Assembly: GCF_002736105.1 (NCBI RefSeq)
Contig: NZ_CP024123.1
Coordinates: 984,001 to 1,048,000 of the forward strand
Source of the DNA: Solibacillus sp. R5-41
Lineage (GTDB): Bacteria; Bacillota; Bacilli; Bacillales_A; Planococcaceae
DNA: 64,000 nt
Reading direction: 5' to 3'
Below, piece by piece: positions 9,017 through 63,326 of the stretch. Positions within the stretch are counted from its first letter, which is position 1, and each line of letters starts with the position of its first letter. The notes beneath the pieces are model-generated. The model worked only from the letters and a program-made list of their open reading frames with translations. It did no database searches and was not told the DNA's origin. A program made the translations under genes and the position numbers.

Positions 9017-9030
9017 AGAGAACTTTAACT

Positions 9031-9102
9031 TGATTTTTAGGGGAGTATTTTCGAGCATGCTCGAAAAAAATCTGAACGCAATTACGCCGAGGTGTAATTG
9101 AT
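9031..9102 (+). repeat. Half copy of the dispersed double-hairpin repeat
   Basis: This stretch carries the distal half of the repeat seen in full at 22788-22970. It includes the palindrome TCGAGCATGCTCGA (9051-9064), the linker AAAAAAATCTGAACG and the hairpin CAATTACGCCGAGGTGTAATTG. The proximal part is missing. It sits between the rpsB terminator and the tsf promoter. Confidence 0.75.
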
Positions 9103-16215: not shown

Positions 16216-16384
16216 TTGATTGGAATGAAAGGGGAGGCGACTCCAGCGGGAACAGCTCTAATGGAACGAAGGATAAAATCGTTATGTTCTGTGACAACGA
16301 CTTCGTGACTAATATCGTGTTGGCCCGAGACTACAGGCTCAGGCCGTGCCCGTGGAAAGCATCCGGACCGGAATAAAAATCAAT
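16216..16384 (+). repeat. GC-richer intergenic repeat of a Bacillaceae-wide type
   Basis: The 519-base gap between rasP and proS holds a stretch more GC-rich than its surroundings. It runs from TTGATTGGAATGAAAGG to CCGGAATAAAAATCAA. Segments such as GACTCCAGCGGGAACAG, GGCTCAGGCC and CGTGGAAAGC match, from memory, a repeat often found between genes in Bacillus and relatives. The outer ends (TTGATT / AATCAA) are inverted. An imperfect 10-bp hairpin (16386-16414) follows. No ORF or tRNA is visible. A database search would be needed to name it. Confidence 0.55.
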
Positions 16385-16492
16385 CCCCCTGTTATGGCAG
16401 ATATCTAACAGGAGGAATTCTTTAGTTTAACTTATATAGACATGAATTGAGTAAGATGTTTTATTCTATTGCTAAATAATTATGAATTATAA

Positions 16493-18414: not shown

Positions 18415-18461
18415 TTCGTGTGAAACTAATAATATTGAAGTAAATAAGGAAGGTGAAGGAA

Positions 18462-21400
18462 TTGGCACAACAGGAGGCAAAACAAAAGTTCTTACTTCTG
18501 TTACAACAACTTGAACTAACAGATGACGTCTATATGTCCTTCTTTGAAAAAGGTGAGCTCGAACGAGTAACGGTCCATAAAAAGAAACGTGTATGGCATT
18601 TTAAAATAAAGGTTAACAATATTTTGCCCTTCGAAGTATATCAACTATTACGAGCGCGGATGGCAGAAAAGTTTTCTCATATCGCGTCGGTTTCACTAAC
18701 AATTGATTCTTTTAATCCCATTGTTAATGAGCAGCATATTTTAGATTATTGGTACCCTACGATCGAACAAATTTCAGATATGTCGCCTTTATTACGTGAA
18801 AATTTATCACAACAAGTACCTAAGTGGACAGGTCATAAGCTTGTCGTCACTTCGATGCTAGAAGTAGAATATTTATCATTGAAGGCGAAATATACGGATA
18901 AGATTGCAGAATCTTATCGCGCATTTGGTTTTCCGCATATCCCACTAGAATTCAAGCTTGTAGAAGAATCGGAAGAATTTATTGCACAACAAGAAGCATT
19001 CTATATGCAACGACAAGTAGAAGAAGAGCGATTATCGAAACAGGCAATGGCGGATTTTGCAATGCGTGAAAAGGAAAAGTCGGACAATCCAGGTGCGGTA
19101 ACAAGCGATGCACCATTCCAATTAGGCTCTTTTATCAAAAATGCAGAATCGGCTGATATTCGAACTATTTTAGAAGAAGAGCGTTCCATTATCATTGAAG
19201 GATTTATTTTTGCGGTAGATATTAAGGAATTACGAAGTGGCCGCTCACTTCTTGAGATGAAAGTATCAGATTATACGGATTCCTTAATGGTGAAAATGTT
19301 CTCTAATAGCGATGAAGATGTTGCGAAAATGAACATGATTAGTAAAGGTATGTGGGTAAGACTACGTGGCTCGATCCAAATGGATACATTCGCACGTGAT
19401 TTAGTCATGATGGTAAAAGATATTAATGAAATCAAAAAAGAGCCACGTAAAGATTATGCACCAGAAGGCGAAAAGCGTGTGGAATTGCATTTACATACGC
19501 CGATGAGCCAAATGGATGCGATGACACCCGTCGACAAATTAGTAGCACAGGCCGCAAAATGGGGACACCCTGCCATTGCCATAACAGACCATGCCGTTGT
19601 TCAATCTTTCCCAGAAGCCTATTCTGCTGGAAAGAAAAATGGCATTAAAGTCATTTATGGTGTAGAGGCAAATTTAGTAGACGACGGTAAGCCAATTGCC
19701 TACGATCCGATTGATTCATTACTCGAGGATACGACCTATGTTGTATTTGACGTAGAAACAACGGGCTTTTCAAATGTGTATGATACCATTATTGAATTAG
19801 CGGCAGTTAAAATCAAAAATGGCCAAGTACTGGATACGTTTGAGCGCTTTTCGAATCCACACCGTAAATTAACGGCGAAAATTATAGAATTGACACATAT
19901 TACGGATGATATGCTCGTGAATGCACCGGAAATTGAGGAAGTCATTAAAGAATTCCATGATTTTATTGGCGATGCAGTAGTAGTAGCTCATAATGCGGCA
20001 TTTGACTTAGGCTTCCTCTATGTAGCTTATAAAAAAGCTGGCTTGGAGCATGTTCGTCATCCAGGGATTGATACGGTTGAGTTATCACGCTTAGTTAATC
20101 CCGCACAAAAATCACATAGCTTAAAAACGTTAACGAAAAAATACAATATTGAATTAACGCAACATCACCGTGCGATTTATGACACGGAAGCGACAGGGGA
20201 ATTATTGCTTCATTTACTGAAGCAAACAGCTGATTTAGGCATTCAAAATTTAAATGAATTAAATGACCATGTAGGTGGTGAAGAAGGTTATAAACAAGCG
20301 CGTCCAAGCCACTGTACGATTTTAGCCGTAGATGATGCGGGATTGAAAAATTTGTTTAAGCTAATTACCATTTCCCACACCCAAACATTTTATCGTGTAC
20401 CACGGATACGTCGTTCGGATTTACAAAAGCTACGTCAAGGTTTGATTATCGGGTCAGGTTGTTCGAACGGTGAGTTATTCGAAACGATGATGAATAAAAC
20501 ACCAGAGGAAGCGGAACGAATTGCGCAGTTTTATGATTATTTAGAAGTGATGCCAAAACCAGTTTATTCTCAGCTTGTTGATGGTGGTACGGTGCATGAT
20601 GAATGGGCATTAGAAGATATTATTCGCCGCATTGTCAAGCTAGGGAAAAAATTAAATTTGCCCGTTGTCGCAACAGGAAATGTGCATTATTTACACGAAA
20701 CGGATGCAAAGTTCCGTCAAATTTTAATTGGCTCTATGGGTGGGGCAAATCCATTAAATCGCCAGCCTTTACCGCAAGTTCATTTCCGTACAACGGATGA
20801 TATGTTGAAGGAATTTGATTTTTTAGGACCTGATTTAGCAAAAGAGGTCGTTGTGAAGAATACGCAGCTCGTTGCCGATATGATCGGTGATGTGAAGCCG
20901 ATTAAAGATGACCTATATACGCCGAAAATTGAGGGTTCTGATGATGAGGTAACAAATTTAACGTATGAAATGGCGCATGAAATATACGGAGAGACTTTAC
21001 CGGAAATTGTGCAAGCGCGTATTGATAAGGAATTAAAATCAATTTTAGGTCATGGCTTCGGAGTAATTTATTTAATTTCAGCAAAGCTCGTGAAAAAGTC
21101 ACTAGCGGATGGCTATTTAGTTGGGTCACGTGGTTCAGTAGGCTCGTCACTTGTGGCAACCTTCATGGAAATTACCGAAGTGAATCCATTGCCACCGCAT
21201 TATGTATGTCCGAACTGTAAGCATTCCGAATTTATTGCAGATGGTTCCGTCGCATCAGGCTATGACTTGCCGAACAAAGAATGTCCTGAATGTGGCGCGC
21301 ATTATAAAAAAGACGGGCAAGACATCCCGTTTGAAACATTCCTAGGATTCAAAGGAGATAAGGTACCCGACATCGATTTGAACTTCTCAGGTGAGTACCA

Positions 21401-22787
21401 ACCACAAGCCCATAACTATACGAAAGTACTGTTTGGGGAGGATTATGTATTCCGTGCAGGTACAATTGGAACCGTTGCCGAAAAAACGGCTTATGGATAT
21501 GTTAAAGGTTATGGCAATGATCATGGCATCACCTATCGCAATGCAGAAGTGGACAGACTTGTACAAGGGTGCACCGGAGTAAAGCGAACTTCAGGACAAC
21601 ACCCAGGGGGAATTATTGTTGTACCAGATTATATGGATATTTATGATTTTACACCAGTACAATTCCCTGCAGATGCACAAGATTCAGAGTGGAAAACAAC
21701 GCATTTTGATTTCCACTCGATTCACGATAATATTTTGAAACTTGATATTCTAGGGCACGATGATCCGACGGTTATTCGTATGCTACAAGATTTATCAGGA
21801 ATTGACCCGAAAACTATTCCGACAGATGACCCGATTGTTATGGAAATCTTTAGTTCAACGAAATCTCTTGGTGTAACGGAAAAGCAAATTGGAACAAAAA
21901 CAGGGACGCTTGGTATTCCTGAGTTCGGGACTAAGTTCGTTCGCCAAATGCTTGAAGAAACGAAGCCATCAACATTTAGTGAGCTCGTGCAAATTTCAGG
22001 ACTGTCACACGGAACGGACGTATGGTTAGGAAATGCTTCTGATTTGATTAAAGATGGCACATGTGTTTTGGCCGAAGTAATTGGTTGTCGTGATGACATT
22101 ATGGTGTATTTAATTTACCAAGATCTTGAGCCATCCTTTGCCTTTAAAATTATGGAATCCGTACGTAAAGGGAAAGGTTTATCCGATGATATGGAAGCCG
22201 AAATGCGTGCGAAGAAAGTGCCGGAGTGGTATATCGATTCTTGTAAAAAGATAAAATATATGTTCCCTAAAGCCCACGCAGCTGCCTATGTTTTAATGGC
22301 GGTACGTATTGCTTGGTTTAAAGTGCATCACCCAATTTTATATTATGCTGCGTACTTTACAGTGCGAGCATCTGATTTTGATTTAATTGCTATGACGCAA
22401 GGCTCTGTCATGATTCGCAAAAAAGTCGATGAAATCAATATGAAAGGTTTGGATGCGGCGCCTAAAGAGAAAAGTTTATTAACCGTGATGGAAATTGCTT
22501 TAGAAATGTGTGAGCGTGGAATGACCTTTAAGAAGATTGATTTATATCGTTCTCAAGCAAGTGAATTTATCATTGAAGGCAATTCGTTGATTCCCCCATT
22601 TGATGCGATTCCAGGACTTGGAACAAACGTTGCAAAACAAATTGTCGAAGCACGTAAAAACGGTGAGTTCTTGTCAAAAGAAGATTTGCAACAACGTGGA
22701 CGTGTATCGAAAACATTGATTGAATATATGGATGAACTTGGTTGTTTAGAAGGAATGCCAGATGCAAACCAATTATCGCTTTTCTAA
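18462..22787 (+). CDS. polC: DNA polymerase III alpha subunit, Gram-positive type PolC
   Basis: 1441 residues from TTG 18462. I preferred this to GTG 18453 because GGAAGGTG lies at a good distance only for the TTG. In order: N-terminal domains, an OB-fold region from about 190, the PHP domain ([10 protein letters not shown] near 342) interrupted by a DEDD 3'-5' exonuclease ([11 protein letters not shown] near 427; HNAAFDLGF), a four-cysteine zinc module (CPNCKH...CPECG near 915-945), and the palm acidic motif [10 protein letters not shown] near 968. PolC is the replicative polymerase with built-in proofreading. A dispersed repeat begins immediately after the stop. Confidence 0.97.
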
Positions 22788-22970
22788 CTTGCTTCAGCAG
22801 AAATCCTCCACTTCTATAAGTGGGAGATAAATATACAACTATCCGTTTTATTCAGTGATGGATTTAAACCCGTCTGAATCAAGTTAATGCCCCCCGGCGT
22901 ATGTCACAGATTTTTTTCGAGCGTGCTCGAAAAAAATCTGGACGCAATTACGCCGAGGCGTAATTGATTT
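22788..22970 (+). repeat. Full copy of the dispersed double-hairpin repeat, abutting the polC stop
   Basis: It begins CTTGCTTCAGCAG on the base after the polC TAA. A CTCCACTTCTATAAGTGGGAG hairpin-forming part follows, then a variable middle with GAATCAAGTTAATG. Next come TCGAGCGTGCTCGA and a ten-bp perfect hairpin with arms CAATTACGCC and GGCGTAATTG. Similar copies are at 56314-56504 (inverted) and 63138-63326, with decayed or partial copies at 30931-31090 and 9031-9102. No ORF is apparent. It occupies the first half of the 430-base gap before rimP. Confidence 0.8.
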
Positions 22971-23065: not shown

Positions 23066-23103
23066 AAAAGAGTGGGATTTCCCGCTCTTTTCTGTTGTTT
23101 AGA
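23066..23103 (+). terminator. Terminator-like hairpin (possible attenuator) in the rimP-nusA leader
   Basis: AAAAGAGTGGG (23066-23076), loop ATTT, CCCGCTCTTTT (23081-23091) form an 11-bp stem with one G-U. The following T-tract is interrupted (CTGTTGTTT). It lies about 25 bases after the predicted transcription start and 125 bases before rimP. A weak, interrupted U-tract is what NusA-dependent terminators look like. As I recall, NusA limits its own operon this way in B. subtilis. Confidence 0.6.
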
Positions 23104-30903: not shown

Positions 30904-30930
30904 TATGTTTATCTTAATTCAGTATAGTAC

Positions 30931-31090
30931 TCCTACCACTATGATGGCGGGATGAATGCGATTTGACTTTAGATGTGTATTTAAGTCAAATTAAACACAA
31001 TATAGTATTTTTCTATCATGCAATTTTAATGCGCCTAAATGAAAATTATCTTCAAAATCCGGACGCAATTACGCCAAGGTGTAATTTAAT
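30931..31090 (+). repeat. Decayed copy of the dispersed double-hairpin repeat
   Basis: TCCTACCACTATGATGGCGGGATGAATGC at the left resembles the CTCCACTTCTATAAGTGGGxGATGAATGC part of other copies. At the right, ATCCGGACGCAATTACGCCAAGGTGTAATTTAAT matches the terminal hairpin. The middle, including the TCGAGC palindrome, is not recognisable. It fills much of the 341-base gap between rpsO and pnp. TGATACACT at 31141-31149 is a possible extended -10 for pnp. Confidence 0.55.
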
Positions 31091-31206: not shown

Positions 31207-33318
31207 ATGAACGAAAAAAAGGTCTTTTCGTATGAATGGGCTGGCCGTCCACTAGTAATAGAAGTTGGACAGTTAGCAAAACAAGCAAATGGTGCAGCAC
31301 TTGTGCGCTATGGCGAAACAGCAGTATTATCAACAGCAACAATGTCAAAATCTCCAAAAGCATTAGATTTCTTCCCATTAACAGTAAACTATGAAGAAAA
31401 ACTATACGCAGCTGGTAAAATCCCAGGTGGTTTTATTAAACGTGAAGGACGTCCATCAGAGTCAGCTATTTTAGCCTCTCGTTTAATCGACCGTCCAATC
31501 CGTCCAATGTTCCCAGATGGCTTCCGTAACGAAGTACAAGTTATTTCAATGGTTATGTCAAATGACCAAAACAATCCTTCAGATGTAGCAGCAATGTTTG
31601 GATCTTCATTAGCATTAGCTGTATCTAATATTCCTTTTGACGGACCAATTGCAGGCGTACATGTTGGATATGTTGATGGCGAATTTGTGATCAACCCAAC
31701 AGTAGAGCAAGCTGCAAAATCAACGATCCAATTAACAGTAGCAGGTAATAAAGACGGCATCAACATGGTTGAGGCAGGTGCATTAGAAGTAACAGAAGAA
31801 ATCATGCTTGAAGCAATCATGTTTGGTCATGAAGAAATCAAGAACTTAATCGCTTTCCAAGAAGAAATTGTAGCAGCAGTTGGAAAAGAAAAAGTAGAAG
31901 TGGTACTTTACGAATTAGATGCACAGTTAACAGCGGACATTAAAGCGGCTTGTGAAACAGAAATGAACACTGCGATTCAAACAGTTGAAAAGCATGCACG
32001 TGAAGAAGCGATCAATGTTGTCAAAGAACGCATCATCACTTCTTATGTAGAGCAAGAAGTAACGGACGAAACGATGAAGCAAGTAAAAGGCATTTTAGAT
32101 CAAATGGTCAAAGATGAAGTTCGTCGTTTAATTACGGAAGATAAAGTACGTCCAGATGGTCGTAAATTAGATGAAATTCGTGCACTTTCTTCTGAAGTTG
32201 GTCTATTAGATCGTACACATGGTTCAGCACTATTCACACGTGGTCAAACGCAGGCACTTTCAATCTGTACATTAGGTGCTTTAGGCGATGTGCAAATTAT
32301 TGATGGTCTTGGTGTTGAAGAGTCAAAACGTTGGATGCACCATTATAACTTCCCTCAATTCTCAGTAGGGGAAACAGGTCCAATTCGTGGTCCGGGTCGT
32401 CGTGAAATCGGTCACGGTGCATTAGGTGAGCGCGCATTACTAGCAGTTATTCCAGATGAAGAAACATTCCCATATACAATTCGTTGCGTATCAGAAGTTT
32501 TAGAATCTAACGGTTCAACTTCTCAAGCGTCAATTTGTGCATCAACATTAGCAATGATGGATGCAGGTGTTCCTTTAAAAGCACCGGTAGCAGGAATTGC
32601 GATGGGTCTTATTAAAAAAGACGAGCACTACTCTATTTTAACAGACATTCAAGGTATGGAAGATCACCTTGGTGACATGGACTTTAAAGTTGCAGGTACA
32701 GCTAAAGGTGTAACGGCACTTCAAATGGACATTAAAATTGATGGTTTATCACGCAATATTTTAGAAGAAGCGTTAACACAAGCGAAAATCGGCCGTATGC
32801 ATATTTTACAGTCAATGCTTGCAACATTAACGGAATCACGTACAACGCTTTCAAAATACGCACCAAAAATTACGGTTATTAAAATCAATCCAGATAAAAT
32901 CCGTGATATTATCGGACCTGGTGGTAAACAAATTAATAAAATTATTGACGAAACAGGCGTAAAAATTGATACAGAGCAAGATGGTACAATTTATATCGCT
33001 TCATCAGATGAGTCAATGATTAACCGTGCTCGTGAAATTATTGAATCAATCGTACGTGAAGCAAAAGTTGGCGAATACTACATGTCAACAGTTAAACGTA
33101 TCGAAAAATTCGGTGCATTCTGTGAAATCTTCCCAGGTAAAGATGGTTTACTACACATTTCAGAAATTCAAGAAGAACGTACGAAAGCAGTAGAAGACGT
33201 ATTAAAATTGGGCGATCAATTACTTGTAAAATGTATCGAAATTGACAATCAAGGACGAGTAAACTTATCTCGTAAAATTGTTGTTAAAGAAGAAAAAGAA
33301 CGTGCAGAGCAAGCATAA
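31207..33318 (+). CDS. pnp: Polyribonucleotide nucleotidyltransferase (PNPase)
   Basis: 703 residues with two RNase PH-like domains ([27 protein letters not shown] in the first; [29 protein letters not shown] in the second), a KH domain ([21 protein letters not shown] near 563) and an S1 domain at the C terminus ([19 protein letters not shown]). It degrades RNA 3' to 5' phosphorolytically and is part of the RNA degradation network with RNase Y, also encoded here. GAAAGGGG RBS. Confidence 0.98.
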
Positions 33319-55734: not shown

Positions 55735-56313
55735 ATGAATATTCCAAATAAGATTACAGTCTCACGCATACTTTTAATCCCAATATTTGTGATTGTAATG
55801 ATGTTTGATTTCGACTGGGGTAATATGACGCTGTTTGGTGCAGAAATGCAAGTAAACTATTTTGTCGGGGCGTTAATCTTTATTTTTGCTTCAGCAACGG
55901 ATTGGGTCGATGGTTATTATGCACGTAAATACAATTTAGTTACAAATTTAGGGAAGTTTTTAGATCCGTTAGCGGATAAATTACTCGTTTCAGCAGCATT
56001 TATTTTACTTGTTGAAATCGGATTAGCTCCTGCTTGGATTGTCATTATTATTATTTCTCGCGAGTTCGCTGTAACAGGTTTACGCTTAATTTTAGCAGGA
56101 CAAGGAGAAGTTGTAGCGGCGAATCAACTCGGAAAAATTAAAACGTGGGCACAAATTGTCGCTATTTCAGCTTTAATTTTACACAATACGATTTTTACAT
56201 TAGTAGGTATTCCATTTGACGTTATTATGCTGTACATTGCATTAATCTTCACAGTATGGTCAGGCTGGGATTATTTCTATATTAATCGTCGTGCATTGCT
56301 GGAATCAAAATAA
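55735..56313 (+). CDS. pgsA: CDP-diacylglycerol-glycerol-3-phosphate 3-phosphatidyltransferase
   Basis: 192 residues, multi-pass membrane protein with the CDP-alcohol phosphotransferase signature (DWVDGYYARK...GKFLDPLADK). It makes phosphatidylglycerol phosphate from CDP-diacylglycerol (see cdsA) and glycerol 3-phosphate. GAAAGGTG RBS. An inverted copy of the dispersed repeat starts right after the stop. Confidence 0.96.
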   Translation: MNIPNKITVSRILLIPIFVIVMMFDFDWGNMTLFGAEMQVNYFVGALIFIFASATDWVDGYYARKYNLVTNLGKFLDPLADKLLVSAAFILLVEIGLAPAWIVIIIISREFAVTGLRLILAGQGEVVAANQLGKIKTWAQIVAISALILHNTIFTLVGIPFDVIMLYIALIFTVWSGWDYFYINRRALLESK

Positions 56314-56504
56314 AATCAATTACGCCTTGGCATAATTGCGTCCAGATTTTTTTCGAGCTTGCTCGAAAAACTCCTCTAAAAATCTGTGACATCCGCTCGG
56401 GACATTAACTTGATTCAGCTTGGGTTTGAATGCCCGCTAAATTAAGACCATAGTTGGCATTCATCCCCTACTTATAGAAGTGGAGGACTTCTGTTGAAGC
56501 AAGG
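56314..56504 (-). repeat. Full inverted copy of the dispersed double-hairpin repeat, abutting the pgsA stop
   Basis: Read on the minus strand it runs CTTGCTTCAACAGAAG, CCTCCACTTCTATAAGTAGG, GATGAATGCC, GAATCAAGTTAATG, TCGAGCAAGCTCGA, then the terminal hairpin with arms CAATTATGCC and GGCGTAATTG. It thus faces opposite to the polC and LCP-gene copies. Its hairpin end, not its CTTGC end, lies next to the stop codon of pgsA. Confidence 0.8.
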
Positions 56505-56535
56505 TAAATAAGTGCGCAATTGATATGATACAGTC

Positions 56536-56577
56536 AAAAAATCATCATTTTGGTCTTAACCGAAATGATGATTTTTG
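56536..56577. terminator. Terminator between pgsA and cinA
   Basis: AAAAAATCATCATTT and AAATGATGATTTTT pair around GGTCTTAACCG with a T-run on the + strand and an A-run that makes it usable on the minus strand. It follows the inverted repeat in the 312-base gap. TATAAT at 56592-56597 is a possible -10 for cinA without a clear -35. Confidence 0.75.
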
Positions 56578-56625
56578 GATTATGCAGTTTCTATAATGGA
56601 AAATTGGACAGGATGGTGGAATTTC

Positions 56626-57894
56626 ATGAATGCAGAAGTTATTGCAGTAGGCTCGGAATTATTGCTAGGTCAAATTGCCAATACGAATGCGAAATTTATT
56701 TCAAATCAATTATCTGAACTAGGCATTAATGTTTTTTATCATACGGTAGTAGGGGACAATGCGAATCGACTAGTGGAAGTTATTAAAATTGCAGAAAGTC
56801 GTGCGGATTTAATTATTTTTTCTGGTGGTCTTGGTCCGACAAAGGATGATTTAACAAAAGAAGTGATTGCAAAGCATTTGAATACCGAATTAATTATGGA
56901 TGAAGTGGCTCTTCGTTCAATCGAGGCCTTTTTTGCAAAACATCAACAACCAATGACTGAAAATAATCGCAAACAGGCACTTGTTTTAAAAGGGTGTGAT
57001 GTGCTCGAAAATCGTCATGGGATGGCACCTGGGATGCTGTTAAAAAACGCCAAGCGTACGTATATTTTATTACCTGGACCGCCAAAAGAATTAGAGCCAA
57101 TGTTCCAGTTCGAAGCGAAGCCTAAACTAGCAGCGAAAATGCATGATGGTGCAGTCATAATATCACATGTCCTACGTTTTTATGGTATTGGTGAAGCCGC
57201 ATTAGAAGTACAAGTACAAGCGATTTTAGATGACCAATCTAATCCAACAGTGGCGCCACTTGCCTCTGATGGTGAGGTGACGCTTCGTATTACAGCAAAG
57301 GCTGAAAATGAGCTAAGCGCTTGGCAATTAATTAACGAGAAAAAACAGCAAATCCTAGCGCTTGTCGGGGACTATCATTACGGCATTGATGATGATTCGC
57401 TGGCATCAAAATTAGTAGAACTATTAATGGATAATCACCTGACGATTGCGGTAGCTGAAAGTTTAACAGCAGGTCTATTCCAATCAGAGCTTGCCGAAGT
57501 TCCAGGGGTAGGTGGGACACTTGTTGGTGGTGTTGTTACTTATACAGAGCAGGCGAAAATAGAACAATTAGGCATTTCAAAAGCATTACTCGATCAACAT
57601 AGCGTTGTTAGTAGTGAATGCGCGGCAGCTATGGCAGTACAAGTAAAGGGAAAATTCCAAACGAATATTGGTGTAGGTTTGACTGGTGCAGCCGGTCCTA
57701 CTGGTCATGGCAATCAACCGGCAGGTACAGTATGGGTAGCGATTTGTATCGGGGATGAACAACCACTCACATATCAATTACACCTTTCTGGCTCGCGCAA
57801 TACGAATCGACTGCGCGCGGTAAAATTTACGTACAGTTATTTGATGCGCGAATTAGTGAAAAGCGGATATAAAAGGCGCCAAATGTTTAAATAA
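56626..57894 (+). CDS. cinA: CinA-like protein (competence/damage-inducible)
   Basis: 422 residues from ATG 56626 with GGATGGTGG ahead. The N-terminal MoCF-like domain (AEVIAVGSELLLGQIANTNAKFIS; FSGGLGPTKDDLTKE) belongs to the ADP-ribose/NMN-processing CinA family. The C-terminal CinA amidase domain (VAESLTAGLFQSELAEVPGVG) is the NMN deamidase type. It often lies directly before recA, as here; recA has its own LexA-type promoter, so the two are probably transcribed separately. Confidence 0.94.
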   Translation: MNAEVIAVGSELLLGQIANTNAKFISNQLSELGINVFYHTVVGDNANRLVEVIKIAESRADLIIFSGGLGPTKDDLTKEVIAKHLNTELIMDEVALRSIEAFFAKHQQPMTENNRKQALVLKGCDVLENRHGMAPGMLLKNAKRTYILLPGPPKELEPMFQFEAKPKLAAKMHDGAVIISHVLRFYGIGEAALEVQVQAILDDQSNPTVAPLASDGEVTLRITAKAENELSAWQLINEKKQQILALVGDYHYGIDDDSLASKLVELLMDNHLTIAVAESLTAGLFQSELAEVPGVGGTLVGGVVTYTEQAKIEQLGISKALLDQHSVVSSECAAAMAVQVKGKFQTNIGVGLTGAAGPTGHGNQPAGTVWVAICIGDEQPLTYQLHLSGSRNTNRLRAVKFTYSYLMRELVKSGYKRRQMFK

Positions 57895-62134: not shown

Positions 62135-62228
62135 AAAATAGATTGGGACGAATAAAATACTATAAAATCACATAAATATAAAGATACCTAATAGATTGAT
62201 TTGTTCATACAATTCTCGGAGGGGTACG

Positions 62229-63137
62229 ATGAAAAAAGCTTATAAAATTGTAGCAATACTAACAATGGCAATCATTGGCGTGATTGTTATTGTATTTTCT
62301 ACAATCTATCACGACATTAAAACGACAGCACATGAAATATATATACCAGTAATTGCTGAGTTACCTGCATCTAGGGAAGAGGAAATAGATATTGAAATAG
62401 GCGAACCTTTTGCAGCACTTATTTTAGGGGTCGATGAACGGCAAGGAGATAGAGGTCGTTCAGACACAATGATTGTTTTAACGGTGAATCCTTCACTAGA
62501 AACAACAAAACTATTAAGTATTCCACGTGATTCGTATACGGAAATTATCGGGAAAAACGTTCAAGATAAAATTAATCATGCATATGCCTTTGGCGGAATT
62601 GAAATGTCAGTGAAAACCGTGGAACATCTGTTAGATATTCCGATTGATTACGTAGCAAAAATTAATATGGAAAGCTTTGTTGAACTGATTGACATTGTTG
62701 GAGATATTCCGGTTGAAAATAAATTAGACTTTGAATACGAAGGGCAGCATTTTCAAAAAGGTCCATTGCAGCTTGATGGTGAAAGTGCATTGAAATATGT
62801 TCGAATGCGCTATGACGATCCAGAAGGGGATTTTGGTAGACAAAATCGGCAAAAGGAAATTATTCAAGGGGTCATGAAAAATAGTCTGCATGTTAATACC
62901 GTTTTAAATTATAAATCGATATTAAAAACATTAGAAAACCATGTTGAAACGAATGTAAAGCTAGATGAAATGCTAGTGATACGCAAAAATTATTCGAATA
63001 GCCTTAAAAATATCGAACAGCATTATTTAAAAAATGGTACAGGAAAAAAGATGAACGGCATTTATTATTATTTATTAAATGATACAGAACTTGAATTATT
63101 ACAAGGAACATTAAAAAAACATTTAGAAATCGATTAA
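62229..63137 (+). CDS. LytR-CpsA-Psr (LCP) family protein
   Basis: 302 residues from ATG 62229, with GGAGGGGTACG upstream. An N-terminal signal anchor (about 7-29) is followed by the LCP domain with LGVDERQGDRGRSDTMIVLTV, LLSIPRDSYT and INHAYAFGG, which hold the Arg and Asp residues that bind polyprenyl phosphate substrates. LCP proteins attach teichoic acids or capsule to peptidoglycan (TagTUV type in B. subtilis). The neighbour CpsB-type phosphatase suggests a capsule or exopolysaccharide role. A repeat copy abuts the stop. Confidence 0.9.
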   Translation: MKKAYKIVAILTMAIIGVIVIVFSTIYHDIKTTAHEIYIPVIAELPASREEEIDIEIGEPFAALILGVDERQGDRGRSDTMIVLTVNPSLETTKLLSIPRDSYTEIIGKNVQDKINHAYAFGGIEMSVKTVEHLLDIPIDYVAKINMESFVELIDIVGDIPVENKLDFEYEGQHFQKGPLQLDGESALKYVRMRYDDPEGDFGRQNRQKEIIQGVMKNSLHVNTVLNYKSILKTLENHVETNVKLDEMLVIRKNYSNSLKNIEQHYLKNGTGKKMNGIYYYLLNDTELELLQGTLKKHLEID

Positions 63138-63326
63138 CTTGCTTCAGCAGAAGTTCTCCATTTCTATATGTGTGTGGAATGAATGCTGAATATCCCTGTA
63201 ATTTAACGGGTTCTACCCTAGGCTAAATCAAGTTATAGCCCCTGCCGGATGTCCCAGTTTTTGGGTGATCTTTTCGAGCATGCTCGAAAAAAATCTGGAT
63301 GCAATTGCAACGAAGCGCAATTGATA
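63138..63326 (+). repeat. Full copy of the dispersed double-hairpin repeat, abutting the LCP-gene stop
   Basis: It begins CTTGCTTCAGCAGAAG on the base after TAA and continues with CTCCATTTCTATATG, AATGAATGC, AAATCAAGTTATAG, TCGAGCATGCTCGA and a terminal hairpin with arms CAATTGC and GCAATTG. The hairpin sequence differs from the other copies on both arms in a compensating way. It fills the first half of the 344-base gap before the pgi-like gene; 63327-63450 holds nothing I can name. Confidence 0.8.

What the first reader, a model, noticed from the sequence alone, without database searches (positions are those of the whole stretch)
22788..22970. Dispersed intergenic repeat with a conserved multi-hairpin layout
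At least three full copies (22788-22970, 56314-56504 inverted, 63138-63326), one decayed copy (30931-31090) and one half copy (9031-9102) share the same order of blocks. These are CTTGCTTCAGCAG, CTCCACTTCTATAAGTGGG, GATGAATGC, ATCAAGTTA, TCGAGCxxGCTCGA, ATCTGGACG, and the hairpin CAATTACGCC/GGCGTAATTG. No ORF is visible. Five copies in 64 kb implies a high genome-wide number. It could be a non-autonomous mobile element (the CTCCACTTC/AAGTGGG hairpin recalls IS200/IS605 ends), a 3'-end RNA element, or both.
Basis: seen in the sequence. Interest (0 to 1): 0.72.

Follow-up and report, generated by a model that had tools for sequence, protein, structure and literature searches.

The report
Modular mobile hairpin repeat in Planococcaceae
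Short, strongly folded DNA elements without genes have inserted many times between the genes of a Solibacillus bacterium and its relatives, and the longer ones carry a catalogued RNA of unknown function as a swappable part.

Summary
The repeat is real: five copies in the window at the stated places, 29 in 464 kb of this Solibacillus genome (about 270 genome-wide by extrapolation), and model matches in 151 of 250 sampled genomes of the family. Its hairpins show compensatory changes above shuffles. It is mobile: at six orthologous sites the relative has a seamless empty site. The element sits 3' of TTTAA-like sequence, usually ends in TTGAT (23 of 28 copies), duplicates no target and has no overall terminal inverted repeats. 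That is how IS200/IS605 elements insert, but this genome has no detectable Y1 transposase or TnpB, so likeness is supported and membership is not; the mobiliser is unknown. The element is modular: long forms carry Rfam RF01690 (Bacillaceae-1 RNA) at fixed points, and 26 of 31 RF01690-like hits in 944 kb lie in copies, five of them judged by eye. It is not an intrinsic terminator. A copy between pdhB and pdhC in five Psychrobacillus is far more conserved than fourfold sites in distant pairs. bcr1 of the B. cereus group is the nearest described kind; my searches found no description of this family.

The parts
22783..22968 (+). Full short copy behind polC: target TCTAA (22783-22787) plus element 22788-22968
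   Evidence: G011 has the empty site TCTAA|TAGGAAACC
22785..22787 (+). TAA of the target, also the stop codon of ORF 18453-22787 (polC, name recalled)
22783..22798 (+). P1 5' arm, including the target letters
22874..22887 (+). P1 3' arm CTGAATCAAGTTAA
22805..22826 (+). H1 hairpin CCTCCACTTCTATAAGTGGGAG
22903..22943 (+). P2 stem GTCACAG...CTGGAC with apical hairpin P2b; this copy lacks the AGAGGAG loop present in most aligned copies
22945..22966 (+). P3 right-end hairpin CAATTACGCCGAGGCGTAATTG; TTGAT end at 22964-22968
56314..56507 (-). Full copy, right end directly behind a stop codon
63134..63325 (+). Full copy; target TAA is the stop codon of ORF 62196-63137
   Evidence: empty site in G011
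30910..31086 (+). Decayed copy
9024..9102 (+). Internally deleted copy: target and left end joined to the P2-P3 part
16257..16323 (+). Bacillaceae-1 RNA (RF01690) outside this element, in a second repeat type; the same RNA family is the module of the long forms elsewhere in the genome

Best explanation
A family of non-autonomous, highly structured mobile elements of Planococcaceae (shown). They insert directly 3' of TTTAA-like sequence without target duplication, and their right end is a hairpin usually followed by TTGAT (shown at six clean sites and in alignments). The most likely mechanism, inferred, is single-strand DNA transposition of the IS200/IS605 type: one folded strand is recognised through its hairpins by an HUH-type enzyme supplied in trans, which has been lost or is not recognisable here. 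Because TAA is a stop codon, insertion right behind a stop leaves the gene intact, which fits the intergenic placement (inferred). The inside tolerates insertions and has repeatedly taken up Bacillaceae-1 hairpin modules (presence shown, route inferred). Most copies then decay (inferred); single copies, such as the pdhB-pdhC copy in Psychrobacillus, may have been kept as structured mRNA parts (inferred).
For: Seamless empty sites for six copies, none with a repeated target (polC and 63134 also). 24 of 28 anchored G000 copies and 25 of 27 anchored G011 copies have no profile hit at the orthologous place. Compensatory cells above the shuffled maximum in P1, the flank pairs, P2b and P3 and on 36 cross-genus cores (32 against a mean of 9.5; slid structures 2-5). 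58 of 59 copies intergenic with about 88% of sequence coding; in 8 of 30 left-complete copies the target TAA is the upstream stop codon. RF01690 modules in 15 of 20 chosen loci.
Against: No Y1_Tnp or TnpB match in this genome, and Y1 counts do not follow repeat counts across the genus (rho -0.15). No ORF-bearing copy found. Long forms lose the internal GTTAAA that would pair with the target, so that pairing is not required for all forms. Copies in this genome are at most 92% alike, so no recent jump is seen here. The fork-direction bias (105 of 156) is no stronger than that of genes (382 of 460 and 374 of 462). Several 'empty' places hold remnants by eye.
Confidence: 0.55

Rival explanations
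1. RNA-mediated spread: the transcribed, folded element is inserted by reverse splicing or reverse transcription, like an ORF-less group II intron or retroelement.
For: Strong RNA folding (z -5.4), no target duplication, copies oriented along genes, RNA-family modules inside.
Against: No G-T over A-C preference in P1, P2, P2b and P3 (121 against 149); H1 and H2 do favour G-T, giving 341 against 268 overall. The other strand and DNA parameters fold about as well (z -4.4 and -6.0). Reverse transcriptases were not searched for.
Confidence: 0.15
2. bcr1-like insertion by a site-specific-recombination-like route at a TTTAN motif, as suggested for the B. cereus repeats.
For: Same size range, mainly chromosomal and intergenic habit, and a TTTAT motif at bcr1 ends against TTTAA here (passages of PMC6542083; PMC3446304).
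Against: Here the motif is on the left only and not repeated on the right. bcr sequences were not at hand, so no sequence comparison was made.
Confidence: 0.12
3. A functional cis-acting RNA element inherited vertically, with gain and loss rather than transposition.
For: Near-unchanged copy between pdhB and pdhC in five Psychrobacillus; stems keep pairing.
Confidence: 0.06
4. A classical MITE moved by a DDE transposase.
For: Short, high-copy and non-coding.
Against: No overall terminal inverted repeats and no target duplication at six clean sites.
Confidence: 0.04

Closest known systems
bcr1 (and bcr2, bcr3) repeats of the Bacillus cereus group
   Same: 100-400 bp, mostly chromosomal, uneven copy number, mobile-element features, TTTAT motif, often within transcripts (passages of PMC6542083 and PMC3446304)
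   Different: Other host group; TTTAA on the left only, TTGAT on the right; RF01690 modules. Sequences not compared.
IS200/IS605 family and its non-autonomous derivatives
   Same: Insertion 3' of a short target, no duplication, subterminal hairpins, possible internal guide pairing with the target (family features recalled)
   Different: No Y1 transposase or TnpB in this genome and no shared ends found
REP/REPIN elements with RAYT (TnpA-REP) enzymes
   Same: High-copy intergenic palindromes; CGTC-type REPs likewise lack an associated transposase gene (passages of PMC3733652; abstract of PMC8266576)
   Different: REPs are 20-40 bp; this unit is 190-380 bp with several stems, and no Y1/RAYT domain was found here
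Bacillaceae-1 RNA, RF01690
   Same: Present at up to 78.8 bits (gathering 35) as a module of long forms
   Different: Catalogued as a free-standing candidate RNA (Table 1 of PMC2864571); here it sits inside a larger dispersed element
BOX elements of Streptococcus pneumoniae (recalled)
   Same: Modular, variable internal units, intergenic, stable stem-loops
   Different: Other host and layout; compared from memory only

Membership tests
IS200/IS605 non-autonomous derivative | Insertion 3' of a short conserved target without duplication | tested here: met
   Six clean filled/empty sites
IS200/IS605 non-autonomous derivative | No terminal inverted repeats, hairpins near both ends | tested here: met
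   Alignment and fold; covariation
IS200/IS605 non-autonomous derivative | Cognate Y1 transposase in the genome, or an autonomous relative with the same ends | tested here: not met
   (none in G000); Y1 in 9 of 16 congeners, no repeat-profile hit in those 20 loci, no shared ends in six read loci
IS200/IS605 non-autonomous derivative | Internal guide sequence paired with the target (recalled) | tested here: inconclusive
   Flank letters TTAA covary with an internal arm (15 cells, shuffled maximum 8), but long forms lack that arm
IS200/IS605 non-autonomous derivative | Activity of one single strand, lagging-strand preference (recalled) | tested here: inconclusive
   Bias with the fork exists but genes show it too
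bcr1-type repeat | TTTAT motif repeated at both ends | tested here: not met
   TTTAA-like on the left only at six sites
bcr1-type repeat | Sequence homology to bcr1-bcr18 | not tested
   Consensus sequences not at hand; model R2 found 18 of 398 class genomes, 2 outside the family, unnamed
MITE of a DDE transposon | Terminal inverted repeats and target duplication | tested here: not met
REP/RAYT system | RAYT (Y1) gene in the genome | tested here: not met
Intrinsic terminator | GC-rich hairpin followed by a T run on the coding strand | tested here: not met
   On the + strand only the separate terminator 23066-23091 is found; one weak 5-pair call on the - strand inside the copy
Bacillaceae-1 RNA (module of long forms) | Match above the Rfam gathering score | tested here: met
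   16 matches in 15 of 20 chosen loci; the short copy in the finding has none

The most novel reading that the evidence does not exclude
A new class of self-folding mobile element, moved by an enzyme that is not a recognisable Y1 or TnpB protein. Its short form chooses the insertion site by pairing an internal guide (TTAAA) with the target TTTAA, and the family is the vehicle that spread Bacillaceae-1 RNA modules, so that this orphan candidate RNA is mobile cargo rather than a free-standing RNA. Single copies were recruited as mRNA parts, as between pdhB and pdhC.
Probability: 0.2. Interest if true: 0.85.

Novelty: new variant of a known kind. Interest (0 to 1): 0.62.

Why it matters
It gives a large repeat family of Planococcaceae, undescribed as far as my searches show, a defined unit, insertion rule and fold. 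It re-reads an orphan Rfam family (RF01690) as largely a nested module of dispersed elements in this genus, which changes how hits to that family should be annotated and makes its role testable. And many copies with matching empty sites, in genomes without the expected transposase, pose a concrete question: what moves them?

Tried and rejected
Terminator: the hairpin has T before and A after the stem, and the only + strand terminator called lies downstream at 23066-23091. CsrA-sponge reading of the module: PMC4333381 (passages) puts the CsrA-like motif on the reverse complement, whereas 18 of 21 in-element hits lie on the element's strand; G-T against A-C does not single out a strand of the module (40 against 55, p = 0.15). 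Fork orientation as proof of single-strand transposition: dropped because genes show the same bias (assumes origin near position 1 and terminus opposite, and merges capped lists of 100 of 136 and 100 of 121 places). Autonomous partner: searches gave none; two of the large spans proved to be two copies around an ordinary gene and a third two copies in tandem; plasmids and phages no match; viral contigs 0 and 1, the one being an ordinary copy. Model R1 had a poor automatic structure and was replaced by R2.

Caveats on counts: the 80 named loci (of 109 stretches) were picked by an exact core 20-mer, so its conservation across genera is by construction; it was left out. The 20 loci were chosen for unusual spacing or a missing right end. 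Searches scored at most 40 candidates per genome and at most 150, so their counts are lower bounds, and some of their pieces are the palindrome matching itself. Dropped before counts: two partial copies from the alignment and 25 of 299 profile hits as redundant. A pair printed at the end (A54603/B66537) is not established as orthologous and is not used.

Full report
Observation. The five window copies exist at the stated places. The window is C1:984001-1048000 of a 4.28 Mb single-contig genome. The genus is Solibacillus by inference: congener G001 has a contig of 1,422,349 bases, the length of S. palustris MA9 contig 1. Genome-wide there are 136 right ends and 121 left ends with up to 3 mismatches, reversed controls 0 and 0. 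A profile finds 29 copies in 464 contiguous kb, 18 complete at both ends, and 30 copies (7 complete) in 480 kb of the relative G011, which is 92% identical over the 3' part of polC.

Anatomy. From 28 full copies the unit is TTTAA | CTTGCTTCAGC - H1 - H2 - GCTGAATCAAGTTAAA - CCCCGGCGGATGTCAC - P2 with apical hairpin P2b - P3 (CAATTACGCC/GGCGTAATTG) - AT. P1 joins the 5' end to the middle. One copy folds at -73.2 kcal/mol against a shuffled mean of -48.7 (z -5.4); the reverse strand gives z -4.4 and DNA parameters z -6.0. Against: RNAalifold on the 28 copies gave 5 of 31 pairs with double changes and a covariation term of +0.36, that is, no support. The wider set of 274 non-redundant hits gives compensatory cells of 52 (P1, shuffled maximum 22), 15 (flank pairs, maximum 8), 68 (H1, maximum 47), 58 (H2, maximum 40), 12 (P2, maximum 4), 38 (P2b, maximum 11) and 56 (P3, maximum 19). 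Within this genome alone H1 (11, maximum 18) and H2 (11, maximum 12) do not exceed shuffles, while the others narrowly do. On 36 cross-genus cores 32 cells were seen against a mean of 9.5, slid structures 2-5. Shuffles ignore relatedness, so these are not probabilities.

Mobility. Of 28 anchored G000 copies 4 were occupied in G011, and of 27 anchored G011 copies 2 were occupied in G000. By eye some 'empty' places hold remnants (G000 copies 70754, 320173 and 328112, perhaps 391413, and the place of G011 copy 247298; coordinates), so some are decayed shared copies. Six junctions are clean to within a base or two: polC (TCTAA|..|TTATAAAGC, empty TCTAA|TAGGAAACC), 63134 (GATTAA|..|AGTAGAAAAC, empty GATTAA|AGATGAAAAC), A 137525 (GAATTAA, empty GAATTAG), B 295588 (GTTTAA|..|TCATGTCTT, empty GTTTAA|CCATATTTA), B 310932 (CTAA|..|TAAGGGAG, empty TTAA|TAAGGGAG) and B 340644. 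In none is the left target repeated on the right. The right end is TTGAT in 23 of 28 aligned copies, one letter off in the other five. Nearest-neighbour identity of 36 copies here has median 0.88 and maximum 0.92, so no recent burst is visible in this genome.

Placement. 58 of 59 copies are intergenic by a simple ORF rule with about 88% coding; in 8 of 30 left-complete copies the target TAA is the upstream stop codon. Copies follow the fork in 105 of 156 merged places, but genes do so in 382 of 460 and 374 of 462, so this adds nothing.

Modules. Sixteen RF01690 matches, all above the gathering score and up to 78.8 bits, lie in 15 of 20 chosen loci. The module sits after CTGAAT, replacing CAAGTT of the P1 3' arm, or in the P2b apex, sometimes in the opposite orientation, and can be nested in itself. 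In 944 kb, 21 of 31 RF01690-like hits overlap annotated copies; of the other 10, five lie in copies by eye and five do not, at least two of these (A_86230 and A_216259, the latter in the window) in a second repeat type.

Mobiliser. PF01797 and PF07282 gave no match in this genome, while the named controls rang in 5 and 6 of 14 genomes. Y1_Tnp occurs in 9 of 16 congeners, not in G000, G001 or G002, and does not follow repeat abundance (rho -0.15, p = 0.57). Six of eight chosen Y1 loci were printed and none shows the repeat's ends; the repeat profile gave no hit at E <= 1e-3 in the 20 Y1 loci. Other transposases, recombinases and reverse transcriptases were not searched for. So the IS200/IS605 likeness rests on insertion pattern and fold.

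Distribution. R2 matches 151 of 250 family genomes, 13 of 19 genera, 161 of 261 of the order, largely the same genomes, and 18 of 398 in a class sample at E <= 1e-5, of which G292 and G388 lie outside the family. Named hosts from the 20-mer scan include Solibacillus, Sporosarcina, Lysinibacillus, Psychrobacillus, Metasolibacillus and Bacillus ndiopicus (80 of 109 stretches listed). Plasmid and phage collections gave no match (records very near the window's genome may be left out there).

Possible recruitment. In five Psychrobacillus a copy lies between genes read as pdhB and pdhC (names recalled), starting at the pdhB stop codon. L179 against L152 shows 2 of 62 substitutions and 2 gap positions in the P2-P3 part outside the selecting 20-mer, against 51 of 84 and 32 of 45 fourfold sites, and 7 of 45 in the P1 part with a paired change. 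The contrast rests on the distant pairs: for the close pair L189/L159 the part shows 3 of 64 against 0 of 15 and 2 of 47 fourfold sites. A sixth locus found by model score (L299) matches L159. Of 19 further stretches fetched, 3 showed this site, all from species already seen. All five were picked by the 20-mer, and concerted evolution with other copies of the genus could give the same.

Strand. In P1, P2, P2b and P3 G-T is seen 121 times and A-C 149 times; with H1 and H2, whose consensus already holds G-T, it is 341 against 268. Selection for the sense RNA fold in fixed copies is therefore not indicated.

Literature. bcr1 is the nearest described kind (passages of PMC6542083 and PMC3446304). 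RF01690 was listed as a candidate RNA (Table 1 passage of PMC2864571) and its strand was uncertain to its discoverers (PMC4333381 passage). Searches listed no paper whose title or abstract start describes this repeat or RF01690 as a mobile module; the library lacks most subscription journals, and I read listings and passages, not whole papers.

Noticed in passing
window 16230-16420: A second dispersed repeat type (GACTCCAGCGGGAACAGC...CCGTGCCCGTGGAAAGC) holds the window's only Rfam hit, Bacillaceae-1 at 16257-16323; the similar A_86230 suggests a family of its own.
   Followed up: partly
L152, L159, L179, L189, L200 (Psychrobacillus, between pdhB and pdhC): Orthologous copy inside an operon, far more conserved than fourfold sites in distant pairs.
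   Followed up: partly
L176 and L208 (records titled Arthrobacter beigongshangensis): Copies of the element in records named Arthrobacter whose 8 kb stretches are only 42-43% G+C, so the name or assembly looks doubtful.
   Followed up: partly
L284 (IMG/VR contig IMGVR_UViG_2791355087_000006): An ordinary copy of the element lies on a contig classed as viral, perhaps a prophage edge.
   Followed up: no
G000:C1:816686-817235 and 840098-840791 (A 32686-33235 and A 56098-56791): Two elements flank a single small gene on each side; the genes look like DUF5325 and ylbG by recall.
   Followed up: no
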